Shown here: one piece after another, positions 26,042 to 39,722 of the stretch
Layout of the letters: every line of letters begins with the position of its first letter
How positions within the stretch are numbered: the first letter of the stretch is position 1
IMG/VR virus record: IMGVR_UViG_3300045282_000312
Location: 1-39,780 of that record
Source: a virus
Strand: one strand, 5' to 3'
Length of the DNA: 39,780 nt
Notes under the pieces: generated by a model
Databases searched by the model: none
The model's input: only the letters and a program-made list of their open reading frames with translations
What the model was told of the DNA's origin: nothing
Translations under genes and position numbers: made by a program

Positions 26042-26278
26042 TCATTCGGGTGGCGACGCCTCCCGCAGCCGCTCGCGGATCGCGGCGAAGTTCCTGGCCA
26101 CCAGGTCGCCCCCGTCTGTATGGCCCAGCACCCAACACAGCGTGCGTTGTGTGATCTCCGCACCCTCCAGCTCGTGCGGCTCGAACACGTTTGCCTGCAG
26201 ACCGAAGCTGATCAGATCGTGCGCGTCGTGAATATCGGAATGCGGTCGCTGGTGATCTTGGTGCTTATTCTTAGCCAT
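26042..26278 (-). CDS. Hypothetical protein, 78 aa, last gene of leftward operon
   Basis: ATG at 26278 overlaps the stop of the DUF5131 gene (TGATG). The product begins MAKNKHQDHQRPHSDIHDAH, a His/Asp-rich flexible start, followed by a compact helical part (EITQRTLCWVLGHTDGGDLV and IRERLREASPPE). The His-rich start could bind metal, and no family is recognised. Coupling to the radical-SAM-like gene suggests the two products act together. Confidence 0.65.
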   Translation of the reverse strand: MAKNKHQDHQRPHSDIHDAHDLISFGLQANVFEPHELEGAEITQRTLCWVLGHTDGGDLVARNFAAIRERLREASPPE

Positions 26279-27612
26279 CAACGTCCCATCTCCTTGGCAT
26301 ACGACTTGTTGTCCAGGACATCGCGCTGCAGATAGCGCATGTGGAACGCATCGGCGACATTGAGCGGCTCCTGGTGGGCACCGCCCGGATATTCGTGTTT
26401 GCGCTCGAGCAAATTGGTCTTGTGGAAGATCAGCGCACCAGCCGCACGCGCCTGGCGCTCAATGTTGACCACCCACTCAAGCGGCGGTCGCCACTGCGGG
26501 GTTTCAGTGGAAGCGGATGCACCACCGATCACCACCCAATCAAAAAGGTCGAGGCGCTGGAACTGAAGGTTCTCCAGGAGCGGCTCGAGCGAGAGCCACT
26601 TCACGGGCGCATTTACGTGACTGAACGCCTCCTCAGCGATCTTGACCCTGACCTGGGCATCGACGGTCGTCCCGACCCAGGCGTTTTGCGGGAAATCGAA
26701 TTCACGCAGTCGTTGAGGGAATTTGGTGAGGAATAAGAAGTTCCATTCGGGATGCTCGCGCACACTCGTGAGCACCGCGTCGATCCATTCCCTTGGCACC
26801 CACTTGCCAAATAGGTCCGCCATTGAGCACGTGAACACGTTGCGATACGCCACATCGTTGGCCGCGGTCGGTGGAACGACGGTGTGAGCTGGAGCGTCGA
26901 GGCGCTCGGGCAGGAATGTTGGGACGAAGCCTTGCACATAGAACCGCTGCGCGATGTCACGCGCATAGCAGTACGAGCAGTCGTGTTTGCAACCCGTCAC
27001 CGGATTCCACGACCAGCGCGCCCATTCGATGCTATCCGTCGATTGGGCATTAAACTTCGTACTCCAGCGAGGACGCTTGAGTACGCGCTCGTGGTCTGCG
27101 CGCGAAAGCTGCCGCCAGACGGGCAGCGTGATGAGGCCATCCACGGGCTGGACCTCCGGCGCCAGAGTCGGGCCGTCGGCCTCGATGACATCGGCGATGT
27201 GCTGAGCGGTGACTACCGGCGTGCCGTTCGCGGTTTGCGGCGCCGTCTCGACAGCCTGGCGCCAGGTCGCTGCGAGCTGCTGCGGATTGTCCCTAAGCGG
27301 GGCGAGCTCGCGCACCTGGGCCTCATTAGTCGGCAACACGTGGGGCGAGTCCACAATTGTGGACTCCTGACCCGCCTGTAGGGCGGTAATGGTTTCGGCG
27401 GCCGTGAGGACCTGATAGACACGGCTGCGCCGCCACCCCAGTTCGCGTTCGACGCAATCCTCGAAGCTGGAATAGCCGAGATCGCGCCAGCGCTCGTTGT
27501 CGTGGAAATCCCGCAAATCGAGGGCAAACTCGACCCACGACCGTTTGATGCGCTCGAGTTGGTTTCGCGCGACGTCGACGGCCGCGGCACTCAGTGGCAA
27601 GACGTCATTCAT
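26278..27612 (-). CDS. HTH-DUF5131 (phage Gp37/Gp68 three-Cys) radical-SAM-like protein
   Basis: A 444-residue fusion. Residues 195-400 match the DUF5131/Gp37-Gp68 family: SWNPVTGCKHDCSYCYAR holds C208, C212 and C215 (CX3CX2C), the 4Fe-4S pattern of radical-SAM enzymes, followed by CSMADLFGKWVP, FLFLTKFPQRL, WVGTTVDAQ, WLSLEPLLE and WVVIGGAS-type blocks. Residues 8-140 are an added part with a ParB/HTH-like look (YSSFEDCVERELGWRRSRVY). The family's reaction is unknown; it is often encoded beside TcmP, as here (8-base overlap with the gene upstream in transcription). DNA-directed or nucleotide-directed chemistry is a reasonable but unproven inference. Confidence 0.88.
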   Translation of the reverse strand: MNDVLPLSAAAVDVARNQLERIKRSWVEFALDLRDFHDNERWRDLGYSSFEDCVERELGWRRSRVYQVLTAAETITALQAGQESTIVDSPHVLPTNEAQVRELAPLRDNPQQLAATWRQAVETAPQTANGTPVVTAQHIADVIEADGPTLAPEVQPVDGLITLPVWRQLSRADHERVLKRPRWSTKFNAQSTDSIEWARWSWNPVTGCKHDCSYCYARDIAQRFYVQGFVPTFLPERLDAPAHTVVPPTAANDVAYRNVFTCSMADLFGKWVPREWIDAVLTSVREHPEWNFLFLTKFPQRLREFDFPQNAWVGTTVDAQVRVKIAEEAFSHVNAPVKWLSLEPLLENLQFQRLDLFDWVVIGGASASTETPQWRPPLEWVVNIERQARAAGALIFHKTNLLERKHEYPGGAHQEPLNVADAFHMRYLQRDVLDNKSYAKEMGR

Positions 27613-28435
27613 CGAAAAATCCTTCCATGCGGGTCTGCGCCTCGTGCTGGCGCTCTTCTCGCGTCATGTCGAGGTCGCGCAGGATCCGCTTTCCATCTGG
27701 CGACGTCCAGTTCTCGAATCCACTCTTGCGCCAGGCGGGCATGCTGACATGCTGCGTCCCGAGCATCCATGTCCATTCGGCAGTGCCGGCTCGCTTCCTC
27801 ACGATCCACGCGCTCTTGTCACACGTCGCCATACGTTCGATGAGCGTCCGACGATCCGTTTGGTAGCGGGCGGGCAAGTTCCGTGGTCGCTTGATTGACG
27901 TTGCCGAGACGTACACCAGCAGGTCGAACCGCTCACGCTTCGGCAGATGGACCAGGCGGGCGAGCAGGTCGAAATCAACCGCTTCGGTTGGGTCGTACAC
28001 AATGACGCCAAGGCCGTCGTACGCGGGCGCGTGCTTGAGCACCTCCTCGGCGAGGACTTCTGAATTGCCTTCAATTACCTGATACTGCGTTCCGGCTTGG
28101 CCGTAGCGCGCGGCGAGTGTCTTCTCGAGCGACACGAAGTTCGCGTGTCGCTGCTCGAGAAAGATGGCGTGGAACGGCTCCCCGAGCCGGGCTGATGCTT
28201 CGCGGAGCGCATCCATTGCCAGCGTGGGTGTGCCGTTGAGAATGCGGCCGTCCGGAAGAGGATGAAGTCCCGGCCCACTGGTCAGGTCCATCCACAGAAA
28301 TGGCCGCGGCCATCGGGGATGGTTGCGGAGCGCCCCGAGCCCGATGTTGGCAATCATCGAACACAGCCCGGCGAAATCGCGGTATTTGTGCTCGGACTCG
28401 TCACCGAGCCCGATGTCGTTGTCCCCCCGCGGCAT
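27605..28435 (-). CDS. TcmP-like protein (three-Cys-motif partner), Rossmann/methyltransferase-like
   Basis: A 276-residue product starting MPRGDNDIGLGDESEHKYRD. Residues 46-70 contain FLWMDLTSGPG and NGTP, the nucleotide/SAM-loop-like signature of the three-Cys-motif partner family. AIFLEQRHANF (about 90-100) and VIVYDPTEAVDFD (about 144-156) look like the next Rossmann strands. A short basic region (SIKRPRNLPARYQ) and a Trp-containing C-terminal part follow. TcmP proteins take their name from lying beside DUF5131; their activity is not established. The ATG overlaps the stop of a 12-codon leader ORF, so translation is probably coupled. Confidence 0.82.
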   Translation of the reverse strand: MPRGDNDIGLGDESEHKYRDFAGLCSMIANIGLGALRNHPRWPRPFLWMDLTSGPGLHPLPDGRILNGTPTLAMDALREASARLGEPFHAIFLEQRHANFVSLEKTLAARYGQAGTQYQVIEGNSEVLAEEVLKHAPAYDGLGVIVYDPTEAVDFDLLARLVHLPKRERFDLLVYVSATSIKRPRNLPARYQTDRRTLIERMATCDKSAWIVRKRAGTAEWTWMLGTQHVSMPAWRKSGFENWTSPDGKRILRDLDMTREERQHEAQTRMEGFFDE

Positions 28436-28670: not shown

Positions 28671-28846
28671 TGCCGTTTCTTCGACCTTTCCACCAGCACG
28701 GCGAGGATGATGACTACGCCGAACCAGACCGCCCACGCGACCAGGTAGTCGCCCGTCGACCAGTGGAACGCGTAGCCGAGGGCTACGGTGACACAGAAGG
28801 TCGCGATGGCGAAGATGCCTAGCCACGTGGGCACACGAGACGGCAT
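28667..28846 (-). CDS. 59-residue two-TM membrane protein
   Basis: ATG 28846 overlaps the stop of the 152-residue gene (TGATG). The product has two hydrophobic segments, about 8-26 (WLGIFAIATFCVTVALGYAF) and 36-52 (LVAWAVWFGVVIILAVL), and a basic end (ERSKKRQ), which predicts a cytoplasmic C-terminus. No family is recognised. A two-TM protein inside a lysogeny-side operon could be a superinfection-exclusion factor or toxin-like membrane protein. The tight coupling on both sides makes the gene credible. Confidence 0.7.
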   Translation of the reverse strand: MPSRVPTWLGIFAIATFCVTVALGYAFHWSTGDYLVAWAVWFGVVIILAVLVERSKKRQ

Positions 28847-29304
28847 CAGGGGCGCTTGATCTCGAGCCGACTGGGCGACGGCACTTCCGCGGTACCTGCG
28901 TCGATGATGGCGGCGATCGTCGCCCCGTGTTTGCGGTACTTGTTGAGCGCGTTCTTCGACACGTTCACCGTGGCCGGCACGGGCACCATGATCTCCTCGT
29001 ACTGCTCAGGCTCGAGGAACGCTTGCAGCTGGCTCAGGCACTCGAGGTCGTAGGTGTACCTGCGGGGCTGCGTCAGTTTGATCTCCCACTCGCCCGCGTC
29101 CAGCACGGTCGCGCCGGCGTCGCCCATCTCTTGCAGCAGATAGCTCTCGGCCTCGGTCAACTGGCGCTTGAGCTCGTCGATCTCAGTGCGGCGCAGCGCG
29201 ACGGTGCCAGCCAGGATCGCCAGTCGGTCGCGCCGCGGTAGATCCTGCAGCTCGCCCAGGCTCACGCCGGTTCCGCCGTACGGACGCCCTCCCACCAGGG
29301 TCAT
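28846..29304 (-). CDS. Hypothetical phage protein, 152 aa (Gp157-like layout)
   Basis: Residues 20-65 form a long charged helix (RTEIDELKRQLTEAESYLLQ). A small beta unit follows (GATVLDAGEWEIKLTQPRRY), then a helical part and a strand-loop (YEEIMVPVPATVNVSKNALN), ending with a short helix and basic tail. The layout resembles phage Gp157-type and host-nuclease-control proteins, but similarity is not strong enough to assign one. It overlaps its neighbours on both sides. Confidence 0.65.
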   Translation of the reverse strand: MTLVGGRPYGGTGVSLGELQDLPRRDRLAILAGTVALRRTEIDELKRQLTEAESYLLQEMGDAGATVLDAGEWEIKLTQPRRYTYDLECLSQLQAFLEPEQYEEIMVPVPATVNVSKNALNKYRKHGATIAAIIDAGTAEVPSPSRLEIKRP

Positions 29305-29578: not shown

Positions 29579-29968
29579 CTAGAAGGCCTCCCCTGAAGGA
29601 TGGGATGGGGTCTGATCGACCCACGCTAGCCAGCGGTCGGCCAGCGTGAGCACGTGGTCGGAGCGAACTTCTTCGCGTGTCTGCGACAGTTGCCCGAGGA
29701 AATTGGCCGCGGCTTTGAGCACGGCGAGGCGAGTGATCGTTTCGTTGCGCGACACCTTGTCTGTCGCGGTTGACGAGTCGAGGACCTGGATGGCGCTGAG
29801 AAAACCCTTGGCGTCGACGACGACGGAGACGTGGGCGCCGACGGGCGGTAGCTCGAGTGGCCGAAACTTGCTGAGGTTCAGCCAGTCATCGCCGATCCGA
29901 ATACCCCGCTCGTTGACGCTCGCGACGGTGCCGTTGACGGTGGTGCCGGTGTAGCCGTTACTGGTCAT
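29579..29968 (-). CDS. Hypothetical protein with OB-like beta start, 129 aa
   Basis: ATG 29968 overlaps the SWIM gene stop (TGATG). The first half is beta-rich (VNGTVASVNERGIRIGDDWL, then AHVSVVVDAKGFLSAIQVLD), reminiscent of an OB or SH3-like small barrel. The second half is a helix (ITRLAVLKAAANFLGQLSQT). Such a layout is compatible with single-stranded nucleic-acid binding, but no diagnostic motif is present. Confidence 0.65.
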   Translation of the reverse strand: MTSNGYTGTTVNGTVASVNERGIRIGDDWLNLSKFRPLELPPVGAHVSVVVDAKGFLSAIQVLDSSTATDKVSRNETITRLAVLKAAANFLGQLSQTREEVRSDHVLTLADRWLAWVDQTPSHPSGEAF

Positions 29969-30207
29969 CAGGCGGCCTGCAGAATCGCCCACAGACGAAT
30001 CGCCAGCTGGTGCTTGCAGACCTCGCGTCGGAACTGGAAGTCAGGGCAGGTGCAGGACGAGCAGTCGGCGGCGTAGAAGGCGCCACTGTGCTGCTGGCTG
30101 GGGATGCCGTAGCCGCCACCCGGCAGGCTGAGCCAGTCCTGGGCGCCGGCAGTCAGCTGCAGGGCCTTGAGACTACGCGGGTTATCCGTTGAGAGCGTGA
30201 TCTGCAT
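29968..30207 (-). CDS. SWIM zinc-finger protein, 79 aa
   Basis: First gene of the leftward operon. Residues 52-66 carry the SWIM pattern CxC-x(n)-CxH: C52, C54, C64, H66 in CTCPDFQFRREVCKHQ. SWIM fingers bind zinc and usually contact DNA or partner proteins. The N-terminal 45 residues contain short strands and look like a minimal beta scaffold. ATG 30207 lies about 14 bases after the -10 box of the leftward promoter, so the transcript has almost no leader. As the first product it may regulate or serve the rest of the operon. Confidence 0.85.
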   Translation of the reverse strand: MQITLSTDNPRSLKALQLTAGAQDWLSLPGGGYGIPSQQHSGAFYAADCSSCTCPDFQFRREVCKHQLAIRLWAILQAA

Positions 30208-30209
30208 AA

Positions 30210-30276
30210 GTCAGTAATGAGACTATATCAAGACGTGCATGACTAAGCAACGTTTGGATATAGTCCGACTCATGAC
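30210..30276. promoter_or_regulatory. Divergent switch region with paired inverted operators
   Basis: Bases 30210-30229 and the reverse complement of 30257-30276 agree at 15 of 20 positions, including a perfect core GACTATATC (30221-30229) and GATATAGTC (30257-30265). Each core holds TATAGT, a good -10 box reading outward. This is the layout of a bistable switch: one repressor dimer per site could block both directions. Next to an XRE gene it is the natural immunity operator. Confidence 0.75.
30221..30250 (-). promoter_or_regulatory. Leftward promoter (lysogeny-side operon)
   Basis: Minus strand TTGCTT (30250-30245), an 18-base spacer and TATAGT (30226-30221). The start of transcription would fall about 7 bases before the SWIM gene ATG (30207). 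The -10 box overlaps the left operator. Confidence 0.55.
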
Positions 30277-30496
30277 TCTGTACGATGTTCATATGGTGAA
30301 GTTGCCGCGGTTGCGCAGCATCCGCGAACGCCAGGCCCTCAATCAGCGCGAGCTCGCGGAGAAGGCCGGCCTCACGCCCGCCTCGCTGTCCCGTATCGAG
30401 ACAGGCACGCAGGAGCCCTACATGAGTACTGTGCGGAAGCTCGCCAAGGCGCTGGGTGTCGAGCCCGCCGACCTCATGACTCCGCTCGATGACTGA
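30272..30496 (+). CDS. XRE-family repressor, 74 aa
   Basis: A Cro/C1-type helix-turn-helix: LRSIRERQALNQRELAEKAG, then LTPASLSRIETGTQEP, then STVRKLAKALGVEPADLM, the full five-helix pattern. I start at ATG 30272 because it lies 7 bases after a rightward TATAGT -10 box (30260-30265), suggesting a leaderless mRNA. ATG 30239 would include the operator in the coding region, and ATG 30293 is the alternative. There is no C-terminal peptidase domain, so it is a minimal Cro-like or small repressor rather than a LexA-cleavable CI. It faces the SWIM operon across paired operators. Confidence 0.9.
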   Translation: MTLYDVHMVKLPRLRSIRERQALNQRELAEKAGLTPASLSRIETGTQEPYMSTVRKLAKALGVEPADLMTPLDD

Positions 30497-30655: not shown

Positions 30656-32374
30656 ATGGCACTCACGTACCTGCACACCGATCCGTTCGAACATCTTGGC
30701 CGCCCGCGATCTCGCGAATGGCTCGAGTCCCATGCGGTTGTCTGGGACGAGACTTCGGGTGTTCTGCCGACGATCATTCTCGGCGTCTACCGACGCATGT
30801 CGACTCTCGGACAGGCGACGGGTTACCGCCAGCAATCCATGATCGAAGATATGACGGGTGTGGTACTCGCGAAGGGCCCGGCTTTCGGGGTGATCATCTT
30901 CGACGAGGGCAACCGATCGGGTCAGGTGCTCGCCAAGCGCAAGGTCGCGTTGGCAATGATCCGCGCGCTCGAGCAGGGCGACATTGATGGCATCGCCACT
31001 CCCGATGCCAAGCGCCTTTCGCGCGATCAGTACCTTGGCGGGGGCCGCGAAATTGTCCTCGCGGTGCGGCAGCGCAAAGCCATGTTGATGCTTGGCCGCG
31101 GTGACGTCGTGAACCTGCGCAACTATCGTGAGCGAAAGCAGTTCGAGCGGGAGCTGCGCGACGCTTCCGATGAGATCGGCGAAATCCGTCAGACTATGTA
31201 CTCGGGCTGGGCCGCGCGGGCGCGGTGGATCGCCGAAGGGAAGGTCGAGCCGATGTTCCGAGGTCCGGCACCCTATGGCTACCGCCATGTCGACTGCCTC
31301 GATGAGTACGGCGAGGTGGTCCGCAACCGTGGCGTCCCTCGACGCACGCTCGCGAAGTTTGACGAGGATGCCGCGGGAGTGGCGCGCATGATCGAACTTT
31401 TTGACCAGGAGCGCAGCCTGAACATGGTGGCGCGAATCCTCAATCGCGAGGGCTACGCCCGCCGCGTGCACAAGGGCGCCTATTCGAAGGGATGGACGGG
31501 GCAACGCCTGCGTGGCCTGTTGCTCAATCCCGTCTATCACGGTGTATGGCGCGCGATCCGCGAGAAGAGCTCGGACCTCTGGGAGGACTTTGACGAGGCC
31601 GATCTGCAGCACCCCGTGCCTCACCTCGCGTACTGGACCGAGCAGTGTGCGCGCGATTGGCTGGCGAAGTTCCAGCCGAGGGTCGCTCATCGTATCCGCA
31701 TTCACCCGCGGCCGTTTGTCGGACTTCTGGTGTGCGCCGGCTGCGGCGGTGCGATGACGGCAGCTGGCCGCCATGGCTACCGCTGCCGCCGCGCGAACCA
31801 GCAGGGTATGGGCATGGTCCAGGGACTCTGCCCAGTGCCGCAGACGCTGAGTGCCGAGCAGGTTGCCGTTCAGCTTCGCGGACTCTTCGCAGTGAACATT
31901 CGCGAGGCCGCCGAGGCGATCGTGGGCGAACACCAGCGACAGAGGGCTGAAGCTGTACGCGACCCGGTCGCCGACGAGCTCACGCTGCTCGACCAGCAGG
32001 AGTCCGCGCTGCTGGACCTGGTGGTTGGCGGCAGCATGAGTCCGCAGGTCAAACAGCGCTACGAGTGGATCCAGGAGCGGCGCTCGCTGCTGTTCGAACG
32101 CCAGCAGCGGCAACAGAGCGTGGTGCGTCTGAGCGATGACCAGGTGGCGCAAATCGCCGCCCTGCAGACGGCGCCTGAGGCGATTTACGACGAGCTCGAG
32201 CCGAACGAGCAAGCCGAGTTGTGGCGACTGCTGAACGTGCAGGTCAAGATCGAGCATGTCGGCGGCCGCGGGATCAACAGCCGCTATCAGTCGTCGATCG
32301 TTGAGGGCGCCGAGTCACTTAGCGCACGTAGCATCTGGATAGTTAGCTCTTACCTGACTGGGGAAGCTGCGTAG
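30656..32374 (+). CDS. int: Large serine recombinase (phage integrase)
   Basis: A 572-residue site-specific recombinase that joins phage and host attachment sites through a serine-DNA link. The catalytic domain has GVYRRMSTLGQ with presumed nucleophile Ser49, EGNRSGQ near 85-90 and the RLSRDQY active-site stretch (about 120-126). The recombinase domain includes GPAPYGYRHV (about 203-212) and LLLNPVYHGVWRA. A zinc ribbon follows at about 357-395 (VCAGCGGAM, then YRC and LC), with a coiled-coil-like insertion and a helical end. The N-terminus is unusual: about 42 residues precede the usual start of the catalytic domain. The gene lies next to the repressor, and its 3' end overlaps an antisense gene by 32 bases. 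Confidence 0.93.
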   Translation: MALTYLHTDPFEHLGRPRSREWLESHAVVWDETSGVLPTIILGVYRRMSTLGQATGYRQQSMIEDMTGVVLAKGPAFGVIIFDEGNRSGQVLAKRKVALAMIRALEQGDIDGIATPDAKRLSRDQYLGGGREIVLAVRQRKAMLMLGRGDVVNLRNYRERKQFERELRDASDEIGEIRQTMYSGWAARARWIAEGKVEPMFRGPAPYGYRHVDCLDEYGEVVRNRGVPRRTLAKFDEDAAGVARMIELFDQERSLNMVARILNREGYARRVHKGAYSKGWTGQRLRGLLLNPVYHGVWRAIREKSSDLWEDFDEADLQHPVPHLAYWTEQCARDWLAKFQPRVAHRIRIHPRPFVGLLVCAGCGGAMTAAGRHGYRCRRANQQGMGMVQGLCPVPQTLSAEQVAVQLRGLFAVNIREAAEAIVGEHQRQRAEAVRDPVADELTLLDQQESALLDLVVGGSMSPQVKQRYEWIQERRSLLFERQQRQQSVVRLSDDQVAQIAALQTAPEAIYDELEPNEQAELWRLLNVQVKIEHVGGRGINSRYQSSIVEGAESLSARSIWIVSSYLTGEAA

Positions 32375-36200: not shown

Positions 36201-37373
36201 ATGCCCACGACTGCCCCCAACCGACAGATGGCGACCACCCGCGGCGCGGCGCCGGTCGCCCGGCGAGCGCTGCCCGAGGCGCAGACCGAGATGACCGTCG
36301 ACGATGCGCTCGAGGTCGCCGGGGTCGACCGCGCCGAAATGGTGCTGCTCGCGGCGACCACCTTCAAAGAGGCGCGCACGCTCGAGGAGCTGGCGACGCT
36401 CATCGCCACCACGCGCCGCCGAGGCCTCGACGCGATGCTGAAGCACGTCTACTACGAACGCTTCGGCGGCGAGACGGGTGGGCCCTCGCTGCACGTCGGC
36501 ATCGACGGCCTTCGGGCGATCGCTGCGCACACCGGCCGCTACGGGGGCGCCCAGGAAGCGCGCTTCTCGGGTACCTGGGATATGCCGACCGACGACAGGG
36601 GCGGCAGCATGCCAGGCCCAGAGAAGGCGACGGTGGTGGTGTGGGGAATCGTGCAGGGCCGCAGCTGCGCATTCGAGGGCACCGCCTACATGCAGGAGAG
36701 CTACCCCGGTGCGGGACCACGCGGGCGCATGTGGCGCCAGCGGCCGCGGAGCATGCTGTCCATCGCGGCGGAACGGCAGGCGCTCAGGCGCGCGTTTCCC
36801 GCGGAGATGGCCGGCCTGGCGGACGCTCCTGAGCCGATCGAGTTCGAGGAGCCCGACGTCCGCACGACCCCGCAACCGCCGCGGCGCAGCATCGAGGAGA
36901 ACGCGGCGATGCACGCGCGCATCTTCGACCAGGACGATGTCGTCGAAGCGAGACCGAAACGGGAGCGGCCGCTCGAGGACCTGGTGGCGCGCTACCGCGA
37001 GCGCCTCGAGCATGCGGTAGCCGACGGCCACATCCCGGCCGAGGATCGCGACCAGTGGGAGTTGCGGCCCGACGTTACACGGGACGTCGTGCTCGACAAG
37101 GGCATGAAGCTCCTCGACCTCGAGCAACTCGCCGCCACGCGGCCGCCAGAAGTGACCACGCGTTCCGCGCTGGGTCAGAAACTGGCCGACCTGGTCGAGG
37201 AGGCCGCGCGGCTGGAGTTGGCGTTTGACGATTGCAAGGTCGGGCTGCCGGCGCCGCAGGAACAGGTGGTCCGCGCGATCGAGAAGCTTGAGGAGCGTAT
37301 CGACGCGAAGAAACGCCAGCTCGCGGGCTTTGATTCGCAGGACGACCCGTCTGCTCAACAAGCGCTGGTGTAA
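36201..37373 (+). CDS. RecT/Redbeta-family single-strand annealing protein
   Basis: A 390-residue product with GGAGG about 10 bases before ATG 36201. Residues 60-235 have the RecT/Bet pattern: RRRGLDAMLKHVYYERF, then LHVGIDGLRAIAAHTGRYGG, then a beta part and MLSIAAERQALRRAF. The last 150 residues are charged and helical with an Ala/Glu/Arg-rich end, an extension often found in such proteins. Annealing proteins pair single strands during recombination and phage DNA concatemer formation, usually with an exonuclease; here the VRR-NUC gene downstream is the only nuclease candidate. Confidence 0.85.
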   Translation: MPTTAPNRQMATTRGAAPVARRALPEAQTEMTVDDALEVAGVDRAEMVLLAATTFKEARTLEELATLIATTRRRGLDAMLKHVYYERFGGETGGPSLHVGIDGLRAIAAHTGRYGGAQEARFSGTWDMPTDDRGGSMPGPEKATVVVWGIVQGRSCAFEGTAYMQESYPGAGPRGRMWRQRPRSMLSIAAERQALRRAFPAEMAGLADAPEPIEFEEPDVRTTPQPPRRSIEENAAMHARIFDQDDVVEARPKRERPLEDLVARYRERLEHAVADGHIPAEDRDQWELRPDVTRDVVLDKGMKLLDLEQLAATRPPEVTTRSALGQKLADLVEEAARLELAFDDCKVGLPAPQEQVVRAIEKLEERIDAKKRQLAGFDSQDDPSAQQALV

Positions 37374-38660: not shown

Positions 38661-39025
38661 CCACCGGTCGCCAGATCCTGCTGGGCGCCGTCGGCGAAGA
38701 GGAGTTCGCTCGCCACGTGAAACGCTGGGCCGATCGCGCCGGGTGGTGTGGCCGACATGTGCGCTACTCACAAGGCGTAGTCGAGGGCGTGCATACGCGT
38801 CGTTTACACGGGCATAGCGACGCGCACGGTGCACTCGACTGGGAGTTCAAGCATCGAGAGCCGGGGCATGCGCTCATCATTGCCGAGCTGAAAACGAAGA
38901 TTGGGAGGCTCACACGGGAGCAGCGTCAGGAAATTCCGCGCCTGAACGATTGCACGTGTGTCGAGGCGTATGAGTGGCGACCTCATATGGAAGACGAGAT
39001 CAAACGAATTTTTGCGGAGCACTGA
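38657..39025 (+). CDS. VRR-NUC-family nuclease, 122 aa
   Basis: GTG 38657 overlaps the previous stop; the longer frame from 38474 is a shadow of that gene. Residues 50-95 carry the VRR-NUC pattern: LDWEFKH with D61, IIAELKT with E77 and K79 (ExK), then IGRLTREQRQEI with Q89. These residues would bind the catalytic metal. VRR-NUC proteins of phages are structure-specific endonucleases acting on branched or junction DNA during replication and packaging. It lies directly before the replication initiator and near the RecT-like annealase, forming a small replication-recombination module. Confidence 0.82.
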   Translation: MTTGRQILLGAVGEEEFARHVKRWADRAGWCGRHVRYSQGVVEGVHTRRLHGHSDAHGALDWEFKHREPGHALIIAELKTKIGRLTREQRQEIPRLNDCTCVEAYEWRPHMEDEIKRIFAEH

Positions 39026-39032
39026 CGACCGA

Positions 39033-39722
39033 ATGGCATGGATCGAATCGCACCAGGCTCTCGGTCATCATCCGAAGACACTGCATCTCGCCGAGGCGCT
39101 GGGCTGCAGCCTGCCGACGGCGGTAGGCCACCTGCAGTTCCTGTGGTGGTGGGCGCTCGACTATGCGCCTGACGGGCGCCTGAAACCGGGCAGTCAACTC
39201 ACCATCGCCCGGGCGTGCGAGTGGCGGGGCAAGCCCGACAAGTTCTGGCAGGGCCTGCTCGAGGCCGGCTTTGTCGACGACAGCGGCGAGGGAGGACGGA
39301 TCCATGATTGGCACGACTACGCGGGTCGGCTGGTCGACAAACGGCGCCGCGATGCGGAGCGGAAGCGACAGGGGCGCATGGACACGTCCGCCGGACTTCC
39401 GGCGCCACCAAATGAAAATGGAACCGGACATCCGGCGGACGGCGCCCGGACGGCGCAGGTACCGGACCTAACCGTACCGGACCAACCGGACCAACCAACC
39501 GGACCGGACCGGACCGGACCCATCCCCCCAAACCCCCCTTCGGACCCGCCGAAGGGGGGCGATGACTCCGAGACGTGCCCCGAATGCGAGCTGCTCGTCG
39601 ATCGCAACGGGGCGGGCCACGGGCTCTCGAAGCTGCCAGGTCGCGTTCGGAATTGCTCGCTTGACCACCTGAAGCCCTTCGAGTGGCAGCAGCGAGCCGC
39701 GGTGGAGGCCGCCAGTGTCTGA
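39033..39722 (+). CDS. Phage replication initiator (winged-helix N-terminus, Cys-rich C-terminus)
   Basis: A 229-residue product from ATG 39033; longer frames run into the nuclease gene. Residues 8-105 look like the winged-helix start of phage replisome organisers: LHLAEALGCSLPTAVGHLQF, then WWWALDYAPDGRL, then FWQGLLEAGFVD and IHDWHDYAGRLVDKRRRDAE. Residues 120-180 are a Pro/Asp/Gly-rich linker whose DNA holds GGACC repeats and a strong hairpin. The C-terminus has CPEC (C182, C185) and ends in a basic helix. It is the likely origin-binding protein of the phage. Its last 80 bases reappear at the start of the window. Confidence 0.78.
   Translation: MAWIESHQALGHHPKTLHLAEALGCSLPTAVGHLQFLWWWALDYAPDGRLKPGSQLTIARACEWRGKPDKFWQGLLEAGFVDDSGEGGRIHDWHDYAGRLVDKRRRDAERKRQGRMDTSAGLPAPPNENGTGHPADGARTAQVPDLTVPDQPDQPTGPDRTGPIPPNPPSDPPKGGDDSETCPECELLVDRNGAGHGLSKLPGRVRNCSLDHLKPFEWQQRAAVEAASV
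39461..39559. repeat. GGACC iteron-like repeats plus perfect 11-bp hairpin: candidate replication origin
   Basis: ACCGGACC starts at 39461, 39476, 39485, 39498, 39503, 39508 and 39513: seven GGACC cores in about 57 bases. Thirteen bases later CCCCCCTTCGG (39533-39543) and CCGAAGGGGGG (39549-39559) form a perfect stem with a 5-base loop. Both lie inside the initiator gene, like the iterons in the lambda O gene. There is no AT-rich unwinding element beside them, the main weakness of the origin reading. Confidence 0.5.

What the first reader, a model, noticed from the sequence alone, without database searches (positions are those of the whole stretch)
26278..28435. HTH-fused DUF5131 radical-SAM-like protein paired with TcmP
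The three-Cys-motif protein (CX3CX2C at C208/C212/C215) and its TcmP-like partner overlap by 8 bases in one operon. The DUF5131 half carries an added 190-residue ParB/HTH-like N-terminal part. Neither family has a known reaction, and the fusion points to DNA-directed chemistry (modification of DNA, of a nucleotide, or of a DNA-bound protein). The pair is transcribed from the lysogeny-side promoter, as expected for a superinfection or defence function.
Basis: partly seen in the sequence, partly recalled or inferred. Interest (0 to 1): 0.78.

Follow-up and report, generated by a model that had tools for sequence, protein, structure and literature searches.

The report
Phage radical-SAM and methyltransferase enzyme pair
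This temperate phage carries two overlapping genes for a methyltransferase-like protein and a DNA-binding radical-SAM-like enzyme; the pair is conserved across many uncultured phages, and related phages have different versions of the methyltransferase beside a nearly unchanged enzyme domain, which suggests a system that chemically marks nucleic acid (probably phage DNA), though nobody has yet shown what it does.

Summary
Two minus-strand genes overlap by 8 bases: a TcmP-like protein (27605-28435) and DUF5131 (26278-27612), with CX3CX2C at C208/C212/C215 and a helical DNA-binding-type N-terminus. The fusion is not unique to this window. It marks one well-supported phage clade in which most members carry a ParB_N+HTH (here HTH only) part fused to DUF5131, with TcmP directly upstream in 54 of 58 unique loci.

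New here: (1) TcmP folds like the rRNA m6A methyltransferase RlmJ and keeps its catalytic Lys and Asp, but not its DPPY motif. (2) DUF5131 folds nearest to spore photoproduct lyase and RlmN. (3) The bacterial form of the pair is PADLOC's untested defence candidate PDC-M30/M41. (4) Phages whose DUF5131 catalytic domains are 76-96% identical can carry TcmPs only about 20-25% identical or not alignable, and in several cases unrelated N-termini too, so partner and DNA-binding parts look exchangeable.

Best reading: a two-enzyme nucleic-acid modification system, most likely acting on phage DNA. Prophage-borne defence is the main rival. The 'lysogeny-side promoter' claim is not supported: the pair is divergent from the Xre/integrase genes. 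Substrate, chemistry and direction of benefit are unproven.

The parts
27605..28435 (-). TcmP-like gene, 276 aa: class I Rossmann methyltransferase fold closest to RlmJ
   Evidence: TIGR04474 E 5.7e-10, below cut-off; AlphaFold2 pLDDT 93.7; Foldseek PDB top three all RlmJ, best E 6e-8
28385..28387 (-). K17 of TcmP, position of RlmJ catalytic K18 (motif X)
   Evidence: at least 90% conserved in 45 TcmPs; RlmJ K18A inactive (PMC3814359)
28268..28288 (-). TcmP motif I, D50-L-T-S-G-P-G56 (SAM-binding type)
   Evidence: D50, G54, G56 at least 90% conserved; aligns with RlmJ DxHAGxG by hhalign
27989..27994 (-). TcmP motif IV, D148-P149 (here DPTE; DPN in most relatives), position of RlmJ D164
   Evidence: D148 invariant in 45; hhalign aligns it with RlmJ DPP
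26278..27612 (-). HTH-DUF5131 gene, 444 aa
   Evidence: PF07505 E 1.2e-39; phrog_2045 E 1.8e-48; PADLOC PDC-M41B/M30B E ~1e-39
27175..27588 (-). N-terminal helical DNA-binding-type region (residues 9-146); ParB/Noc HTH-like, lacks the ParB_N GxRR part
   Evidence: AlphaFold2 helices; Foldseek Noc 7ol9 prob 0.93, E 0.22; weak phrog_6963/464; alignment with ParB_N-bearing relatives
26419..27033 (-). DUF5131 radical-SAM-like catalytic domain (residues 194-398)
   Evidence: nearest folds spore photoproduct lyase (prob 0.99) and RlmN; 31 invariant columns in the alignment of 47
26968..26991 (-). CX3CX2C motif C208/C212/C215, expected [4Fe-4S]-SAM site
   Evidence: read in the sequence; invariant in 47 relatives
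27605..27612 (-). 8-base overlap of TcmP stop and DUF5131 start (likely translational coupling)
26042..26281 (-). 79-aa ORF directly downstream, overlapping 4 bases; no family match; membership in the system unknown

Best explanation
A phage-encoded two-enzyme nucleic-acid modification system. TcmP is an RlmJ-like SAM-dependent base methyltransferase, or a methyltransferase-fold recognition subunit. DUF5131 is an SPL/RlmN-like radical-SAM enzyme that performs a second, carbon-centred step. The ParB/HTH part of DUF5131 brings the complex to DNA. The most likely substrate is phage DNA, so that the mark protects it from host nucleases; TcmP together with the N-terminal part would set target specificity and be exchanged between phages, while the radical-SAM chemistry stays the same. 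Shown: sequence families, fold predictions, conserved catalytic residues, gene pairing, one fused clade, TcmP and N-terminal divergence or exchange against a conserved catalytic domain. Inferred: complex formation, FeS/SAM binding, DNA as substrate, the order of steps, and protection as the benefit.
For: TcmP fold = RlmJ (three best PDB hits, E 6e-8 to 7e-7; the next different protein, PsiM, 1.9e-4); hhalign with RlmJ E 4.9e-8, prob 94.8; Lys and Asp at the positions of K18 and D164, which are essential in RlmJ. RlmJ's active site resembles DNA m6A methyltransferases (PMC3814359). DUF5131 nearest folds are SPL (acts on DNA) and RlmN (acts on RNA), with invariant CX3CX2C. ParB_N plus HTH in most relatives; ParBc domains are often fused to DNA methyltransferases in phages (PMC12783734). 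Pairing 54/58. Neighbours in relatives include replication initiation protein, primase, exonuclease VIII and DNA methyltransferases. Two TcmPs carry a C-terminal HNH-type zinc motif. Partner divergence: L008 vs L010 have 96% identical catalytic domains and 80% identical DUF5131 DNA, with homologous DNA on both sides, yet TcmP is 25% identical at protein level and shows no DNA match; TcmP trees reject the DUF5131 grouping for L057/L075 and L028/31/33/61.
Against: No substrate, product or activity is known for either family. The TcmP motif IV is DPN or DPT, not DPPY, so N6-adenine chemistry is not implied. RlmJ and RlmN act on RNA. The bacterial pair lacks the DNA-binding part and is listed as a defence candidate. 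The SPL match is weak in E-value (5e-3). 15 of 25 fused-clade virus records, the window included, hold an integrase above the family cut-off, so a lysogen-side role is possible. AU tests did not reject a common TcmP origin for L006/L008/L010 (p 0.55) or window/L002/L003/L005 (p 0.33), so fast divergence instead of replacement is not excluded there.
Confidence: 0.45

Rival explanations
1. A prophage-borne antiphage or superinfection-exclusion system, the phage version of PADLOC PDC-M30/M41: TcmP and DUF5131 modify or attack incoming phage nucleic acid or nucleotides, and the ParB/HTH part limits action to target DNA or autoregulates.
For: Bacterial TcmP and DUF5131 are PDC-M30A/M41A and PDC-M30B/M41B; PDC-M30 was found in 32 P. 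aeruginosa strains, 68.8% of them in the phage-resistant group (PMC10855318); the window phage has a serine integrase; diversification of TcmP would fit an arms race.
Against: PDC systems are guilt-by-embedding predictions without experiments. The viral clade lies next to replication genes in several phages, and 9 of 25 records show no integrase at all and one only a sub-cut-off match, though some are fragments. The window TcmP has no PADLOC match.
Confidence: 0.25
2. An RNA-modification pair (rRNA, tRNA or phage mRNA), as RlmJ and RlmN do, that changes translation or blocks a host RNA-targeting defence; the ParB/HTH part would be a regulator of its own operon.
For: The closest folds of both partners include RNA methyltransferases (RlmJ, RlmN).
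Against: ParB_N plus HTH fusions and HNH extensions point to DNA. RlmJ's active site is DNA-methyltransferase-like. A conserved rRNA site would not call for exchange of TcmP.
Confidence: 0.15
3. DUF5131 is a DNA-lesion repair enzyme like spore photoproduct lyase, and TcmP is an accessory factor.
For: SPL is the best fold match; SPL-like NCBIfam radical-SAM hits.
Against: Repair of a fixed lesion would not require a variable, catalytically conserved methyltransferase partner; no known photolesion repair system has one (own knowledge).
Confidence: 0.07
4. DUF5131 is a maturase that modifies TcmP or another protein.
For: Tight pairing in either gene order or orientation in bacteria and phages.
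Against: A dedicated maturase should co-evolve with its protein substrate, but the catalytic domain stays 76-96% identical beside very different TcmPs.
Confidence: 0.08

Closest known systems
TcmP (TIGR04474) + DUF5131 (PF07505) bacterial pair = PADLOC PDC-M30 / PDC-M41
   Same: The same two families, adjacent: 16/16 TcmP-positive alphaproteobacterial genomes and 13/19 TcmP-positive genomes of the Paenibacillus phylum sample
   Different: The bacterial DUF5131 in the sampled genomes is short, with no N-terminal part and CX6CX2C in all those parsed, and gene order and orientation vary; the viral clade has the ParB/HTH fusion, CX3CX2C and TcmP fixed upstream; the window TcmP has no PADLOC hit
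RlmJ (23S rRNA A2030 m6A methyltransferase)
   Same: Fold, motif I, GSP motif, Lys of motif X, Asp of motif IV
   Different: DPT/DPN instead of DPPY, no RsmJ Pfam hit, paired with a radical-SAM-like protein
Spore photoproduct lyase / RlmN radical-SAM enzymes
   Same: CX3CX2C and partial-barrel fold
   Different: Low sequence similarity, different cores (SMADLFG, LTK), fusion to ParB/HTH
ParB-domain-fused phage DNA methyltransferases
   Same: ParB_N attached to a DNA-acting enzyme (PMC12783734)
   Different: Here the enzyme is DUF5131; in the window only the HTH half of the ParB type remains
Radical SAM mobile pair A/B (TIGR04471/TIGR04470)
   Same: DUF5131 scores 83 bits against pair A
   Different: Far below the cut-off of 355; the partner here is a methyltransferase, not a second radical-SAM protein

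Membership tests
Pfam DUF5131 (PF07505) | score above gathering cut-off (28.9 bits) | tested here: met
   136.7 bits
NCBIfam TcmP (TIGR04474) | score above curated cut-off (53 bits) | tested here: not met
   39.6 bits, E 5.7e-10: related, outside the curated family
NCBIfam TcmP (TIGR04474) | adjacent three-Cys DUF5131 gene | tested here: met
   8-base overlap; conserved in relatives
PADLOC PDC-M30/M41 | B component (DUF5131) | tested here: met
   E 1e-39
PADLOC PDC-M30/M41 | A component (TcmP) profile match | tested here: not met
   no hit up to E 0.1
PADLOC PDC-M30/M41 | antiphage activity | not testable with these tools
   unvalidated also for the bacterial systems (PMC10855318)
Radical SAM superfamily | CX3CX2C cluster motif | tested here: met
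   C208/C212/C215, invariant in 47
Radical SAM superfamily | radical-SAM barrel fold | tested here: inconclusive
   Foldseek SPL prob 0.99 but E 5e-3, TM 0.30/0.38; Pfam Radical_SAM 15.6 bits, below cut-off
Radical SAM superfamily | [4Fe-4S] and SAM cleavage | not testable with these tools
   needs purified protein
RlmJ / RsmJ (PF04378) | Pfam match | tested here: not met
   no Pfam hit
RlmJ / RsmJ (PF04378) | RlmJ fold | tested here: met
   Foldseek E 6e-8, TM 0.51
RlmJ / RsmJ (PF04378) | catalytic K18 and D164 equivalents | tested here: met
   K17 by motif position, D148 by hhalign
RlmJ / RsmJ (PF04378) | DPPY motif IV | tested here: not met
   DPTE here, DPN in most relatives
ParB family | ParB_N (PF02195) with GxRR motif | tested here: not met
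   absent in the window; Pfam match in 10/47 relatives, GxR motif in 40 of 60 loci
ParB family | Noc/ParB-type HTH region | tested here: inconclusive
   Foldseek 7ol9 prob 0.93, E 0.22; clade profile hits Noc at 6.7e-9, mostly through ParB_N

The most novel reading that the evidence does not exclude
A phage DNA hypermodification system in which a class I methyltransferase (TcmP) and a radical-SAM enzyme (DUF5131) act in sequence on DNA, with exchangeable specificity parts (TcmP plus ParB/HTH) on a constant radical-SAM core, comparable to swapping of restriction-modification specificity subunits.
Probability: 0.25. Interest if true: 0.88.

Novelty: new variant of a known kind. Interest (0 to 1): 0.58.

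Why it matters
TcmP and DUF5131 are common mobile families with no known reaction in the literature searched here. Linking TcmP to RlmJ with its catalytic Lys/Asp kept, showing a viral clade in which a ParB/HTH module is fused to DUF5131, and showing that the methyltransferase partner differs sharply between closely related phages gives a concrete, testable hypothesis: sequence-targeted nucleic-acid modification with exchangeable specificity. If true it would be a radical-SAM-based DNA mark, with consequences for how phages evade or exert defence.

Tried and rejected
TcmP against phage records by tblastn and the N-terminal 152 residues alone: no match. phmmer of both proteins against the PDB: nothing meaningful. 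Pfam for TcmP: nothing. Literature for DUF5131: none; Gp37/Gp68, TcmP and PDC terms gave only mentions. A TcmP-DUF5131 single frame in one genome (L464) proved to lack motif I and the Cys motif: a deletion remnant, rejected as a fusion. Uniqueness of the fusion: rejected. First version of the pair statistic used only CX3CX2C and dropped 160 loci; redone with free spacing. AU tests did not reject a single TcmP origin for L006/8/10 or for window/L005, so exchange is claimed formally only for L057/L075 and L033; these groups were chosen after seeing the distances. No model coordinates were available, so K17-D148 geometry was not measured.

Full report
What is there. The window is one 39,780-base virus record of a temperate tailed phage: terminase (1153-2412), serine integrase (30656-32374), an Xre-type regulator (30239-30496), a RecT-like annealing protein (36201-37370) and a replication initiation protein (38958-39719), all on the plus strand. 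A minus-strand operon runs from 30207 down to 26042 and contains, near its end, the two genes of the finding. The TcmP-like gene (27605-28435) overlaps the DUF5131 gene (26278-27612) by 8 bases. The 444-aa protein matches DUF5131 over residues 194-398 (E 1.2e-39) and holds C208-X3-C212-X2-C215. The 276-aa protein matches TcmP (E 5.7e-10) but below the curated cut-off.

How widespread. A scan of IMG/VR returned 80 DUF5131 loci; nearly all those with a long N-terminus have a TcmP homologue directly upstream on the same strand. Three further scans allowed a comparison: among unique viral DUF5131 genes with both flanks present, 54 of 58 with a long N-terminus have TcmP immediately upstream, while 50 of 178 short ones have TcmP nearby, mostly downstream or convergent (Fisher p 2e-19, not corrected for kinship or for the choice of queries). 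A tree of 100 catalytic domains puts 39 of 40 long-N-terminus proteins in one clade with 99% SH-aLRT support. Its neighbours are short CX3CX2C proteins without TcmP; the proteins of the sampled bacteria, with CX6CX2C, lie in another half of the tree. In bacteria the pair is linked too: all 16 TcmP-positive alphaproteobacterial genomes of 289 also hold DUF5131, adjacent; in the Paenibacillus phylum 16 of 19 hold both and 13 are adjacent. These bacterial proteins are PADLOC's PDC-M30 and PDC-M41 components A and B, which are guilt-by-embedding candidates without experimental support (PMC10855318). Cultured phages carry the pair in short form: in Gordonia phage Jablanski gp43, annotated methyltransferase, is the TcmP next to DUF5131 gp42; Synechococcus phage Ssp-JY39 has a convergent pair.

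What the proteins are. TcmP: AlphaFold2 gives a confident model (pLDDT 93.7). The three best PDB matches are RlmJ (E 6e-8, 2e-7, 7e-7; the next different protein, PsiM, 1.9e-4). Profile comparison with four RlmJ/RsmJ sequences aligns motif I, the GSP loop, the acidic residue after strand 2 and motif IV (prob 94.8, E 4.9e-8). RlmJ needs K18 and D164 (PMC3814359). TcmP has a Lys (K17, at least 90% conserved) in the first helix and an invariant Asp (D148) in motif IV. K17 is matched by motif position and topology, not by a measured superposition. Motif IV reads DPN in most and DPT in the window clade, unlike DPPY, so the target atom cannot be read off. DUF5131: the model (pLDDT 87.5) matches spore photoproduct lyase best (prob 0.99, E 5e-3), then RlmN, and the N-terminal region matches the ParB-like Noc (prob 0.93, E 0.22). 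Most relatives have a true ParB_N domain with a GxR motif before the HTH (10/47 by Pfam; motif in 40 of 60; clade profile against Noc E 6.7e-9). The window protein has lost or never had the ParB_N half.

The catalytic domain of DUF5131 is conserved while its partner and its N-terminus are not. L008 and L010 are related phages: DUF5131 DNA is 80% identical and there are homologous blocks on both sides, yet the TcmP gene between them has no DNA similarity and the two TcmPs are 25% identical, against 96% for the catalytic domain and 74% for the N-terminus; L006 shares L008's TcmP at 71%. L031/L033, L004/L005 and L057/L075 differ in both TcmP and N-terminus beside catalytic domains 77-83% identical; window/L005 show the same at 76%. 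The TcmP tree rejects the DUF5131 grouping for L057/L075 (p 8e-52) and for L028/31/33/61 (p 0.003), but not for L006/8/10 (p 0.55) or window/L002/L003/L005 (p 0.33). So exchange is formally supported in two clusters and very fast divergence is an alternative in the others. The catalytic Lys and Asp persist across nearly all types, so activity seems to be kept while the rest changes.

How it most likely works (inference). TcmP and DUF5131 probably act together on a nucleic acid, TcmP as methyltransferase or base-flipping recognition subunit and DUF5131 as radical-SAM enzyme, brought to DNA by the ParB/HTH part. DNA is favoured because ParBc domains are frequent fusions of phage DNA methyltransferases (PMC12783734), SPL acts on DNA, and two TcmPs carry an HNH-type extension. 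Relatives have replication initiation, primase, exonuclease VIII or DNA methyltransferase genes close by on the same strand, but one (L038) lies among head genes and another (L015) beside a tail-fibre gene, so the position is not uniform. Protection of phage DNA is the benefit I consider most likely; a defence role for the lysogen is the main rival, since 15 of 25 fused-clade records, the window included, have an integrase above the family cut-off.

The claim is not supported.

Novelty. The families and their pairing are catalogued (TIGR04474 names TcmP as the partner of a three-Cys protein; PADLOC lists the pair). The ParB/HTH-fused viral clade, the RlmJ relation of TcmP with kept catalytic residues, and the partner-exchange pattern were not found in the literature searched here, which covers only open-licence papers.

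Noticed in passing
L044:231-1226 and L297:2433-3422: TcmP frames that continue into a C-terminal HNH-type zinc motif (CX2C...HH...CX2CH); L044 and L297 lie on separate branches of the DUF5131 tree.
   Followed up: partly
L300-L318 and others: DUF5131 splits by Cys spacing: CX3CX2C (fused clade and gut-phage short clade) versus CX6CX2C (sampled bacteria and other phages); the second is unusual for radical SAM.
   Followed up: partly
L464:921-2171: One frame joins a truncated TcmP to a truncated DUF5131 lacking motif I and the Cys motif: a deletion remnant or assembly error.
   Followed up: yes
PMC12445080 (Sinorhizobium meliloti SMa2243/SMa2245): A TcmP gene is listed beside the Hna phage-defence helicase gene with a similar expression change; whether DUF5131 is there too was not checked.
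   Followed up: no
window 29968-30207 (-): Small SWIM zinc-finger protein as first gene of the leftward operon, directly divergent from the Xre gene.
   Followed up: no
window 28846-29304 (-): 152-aa protein with a weak match to the C-terminus of RecE-like exonuclease (phrog_434, E 6e-4).
   Followed up: no
L096-L100: Clostridial loci with a DUF5131-like protein followed by a second, weakly matching radical-SAM-like protein, as in the radical SAM mobile pair A/B.
   Followed up: no
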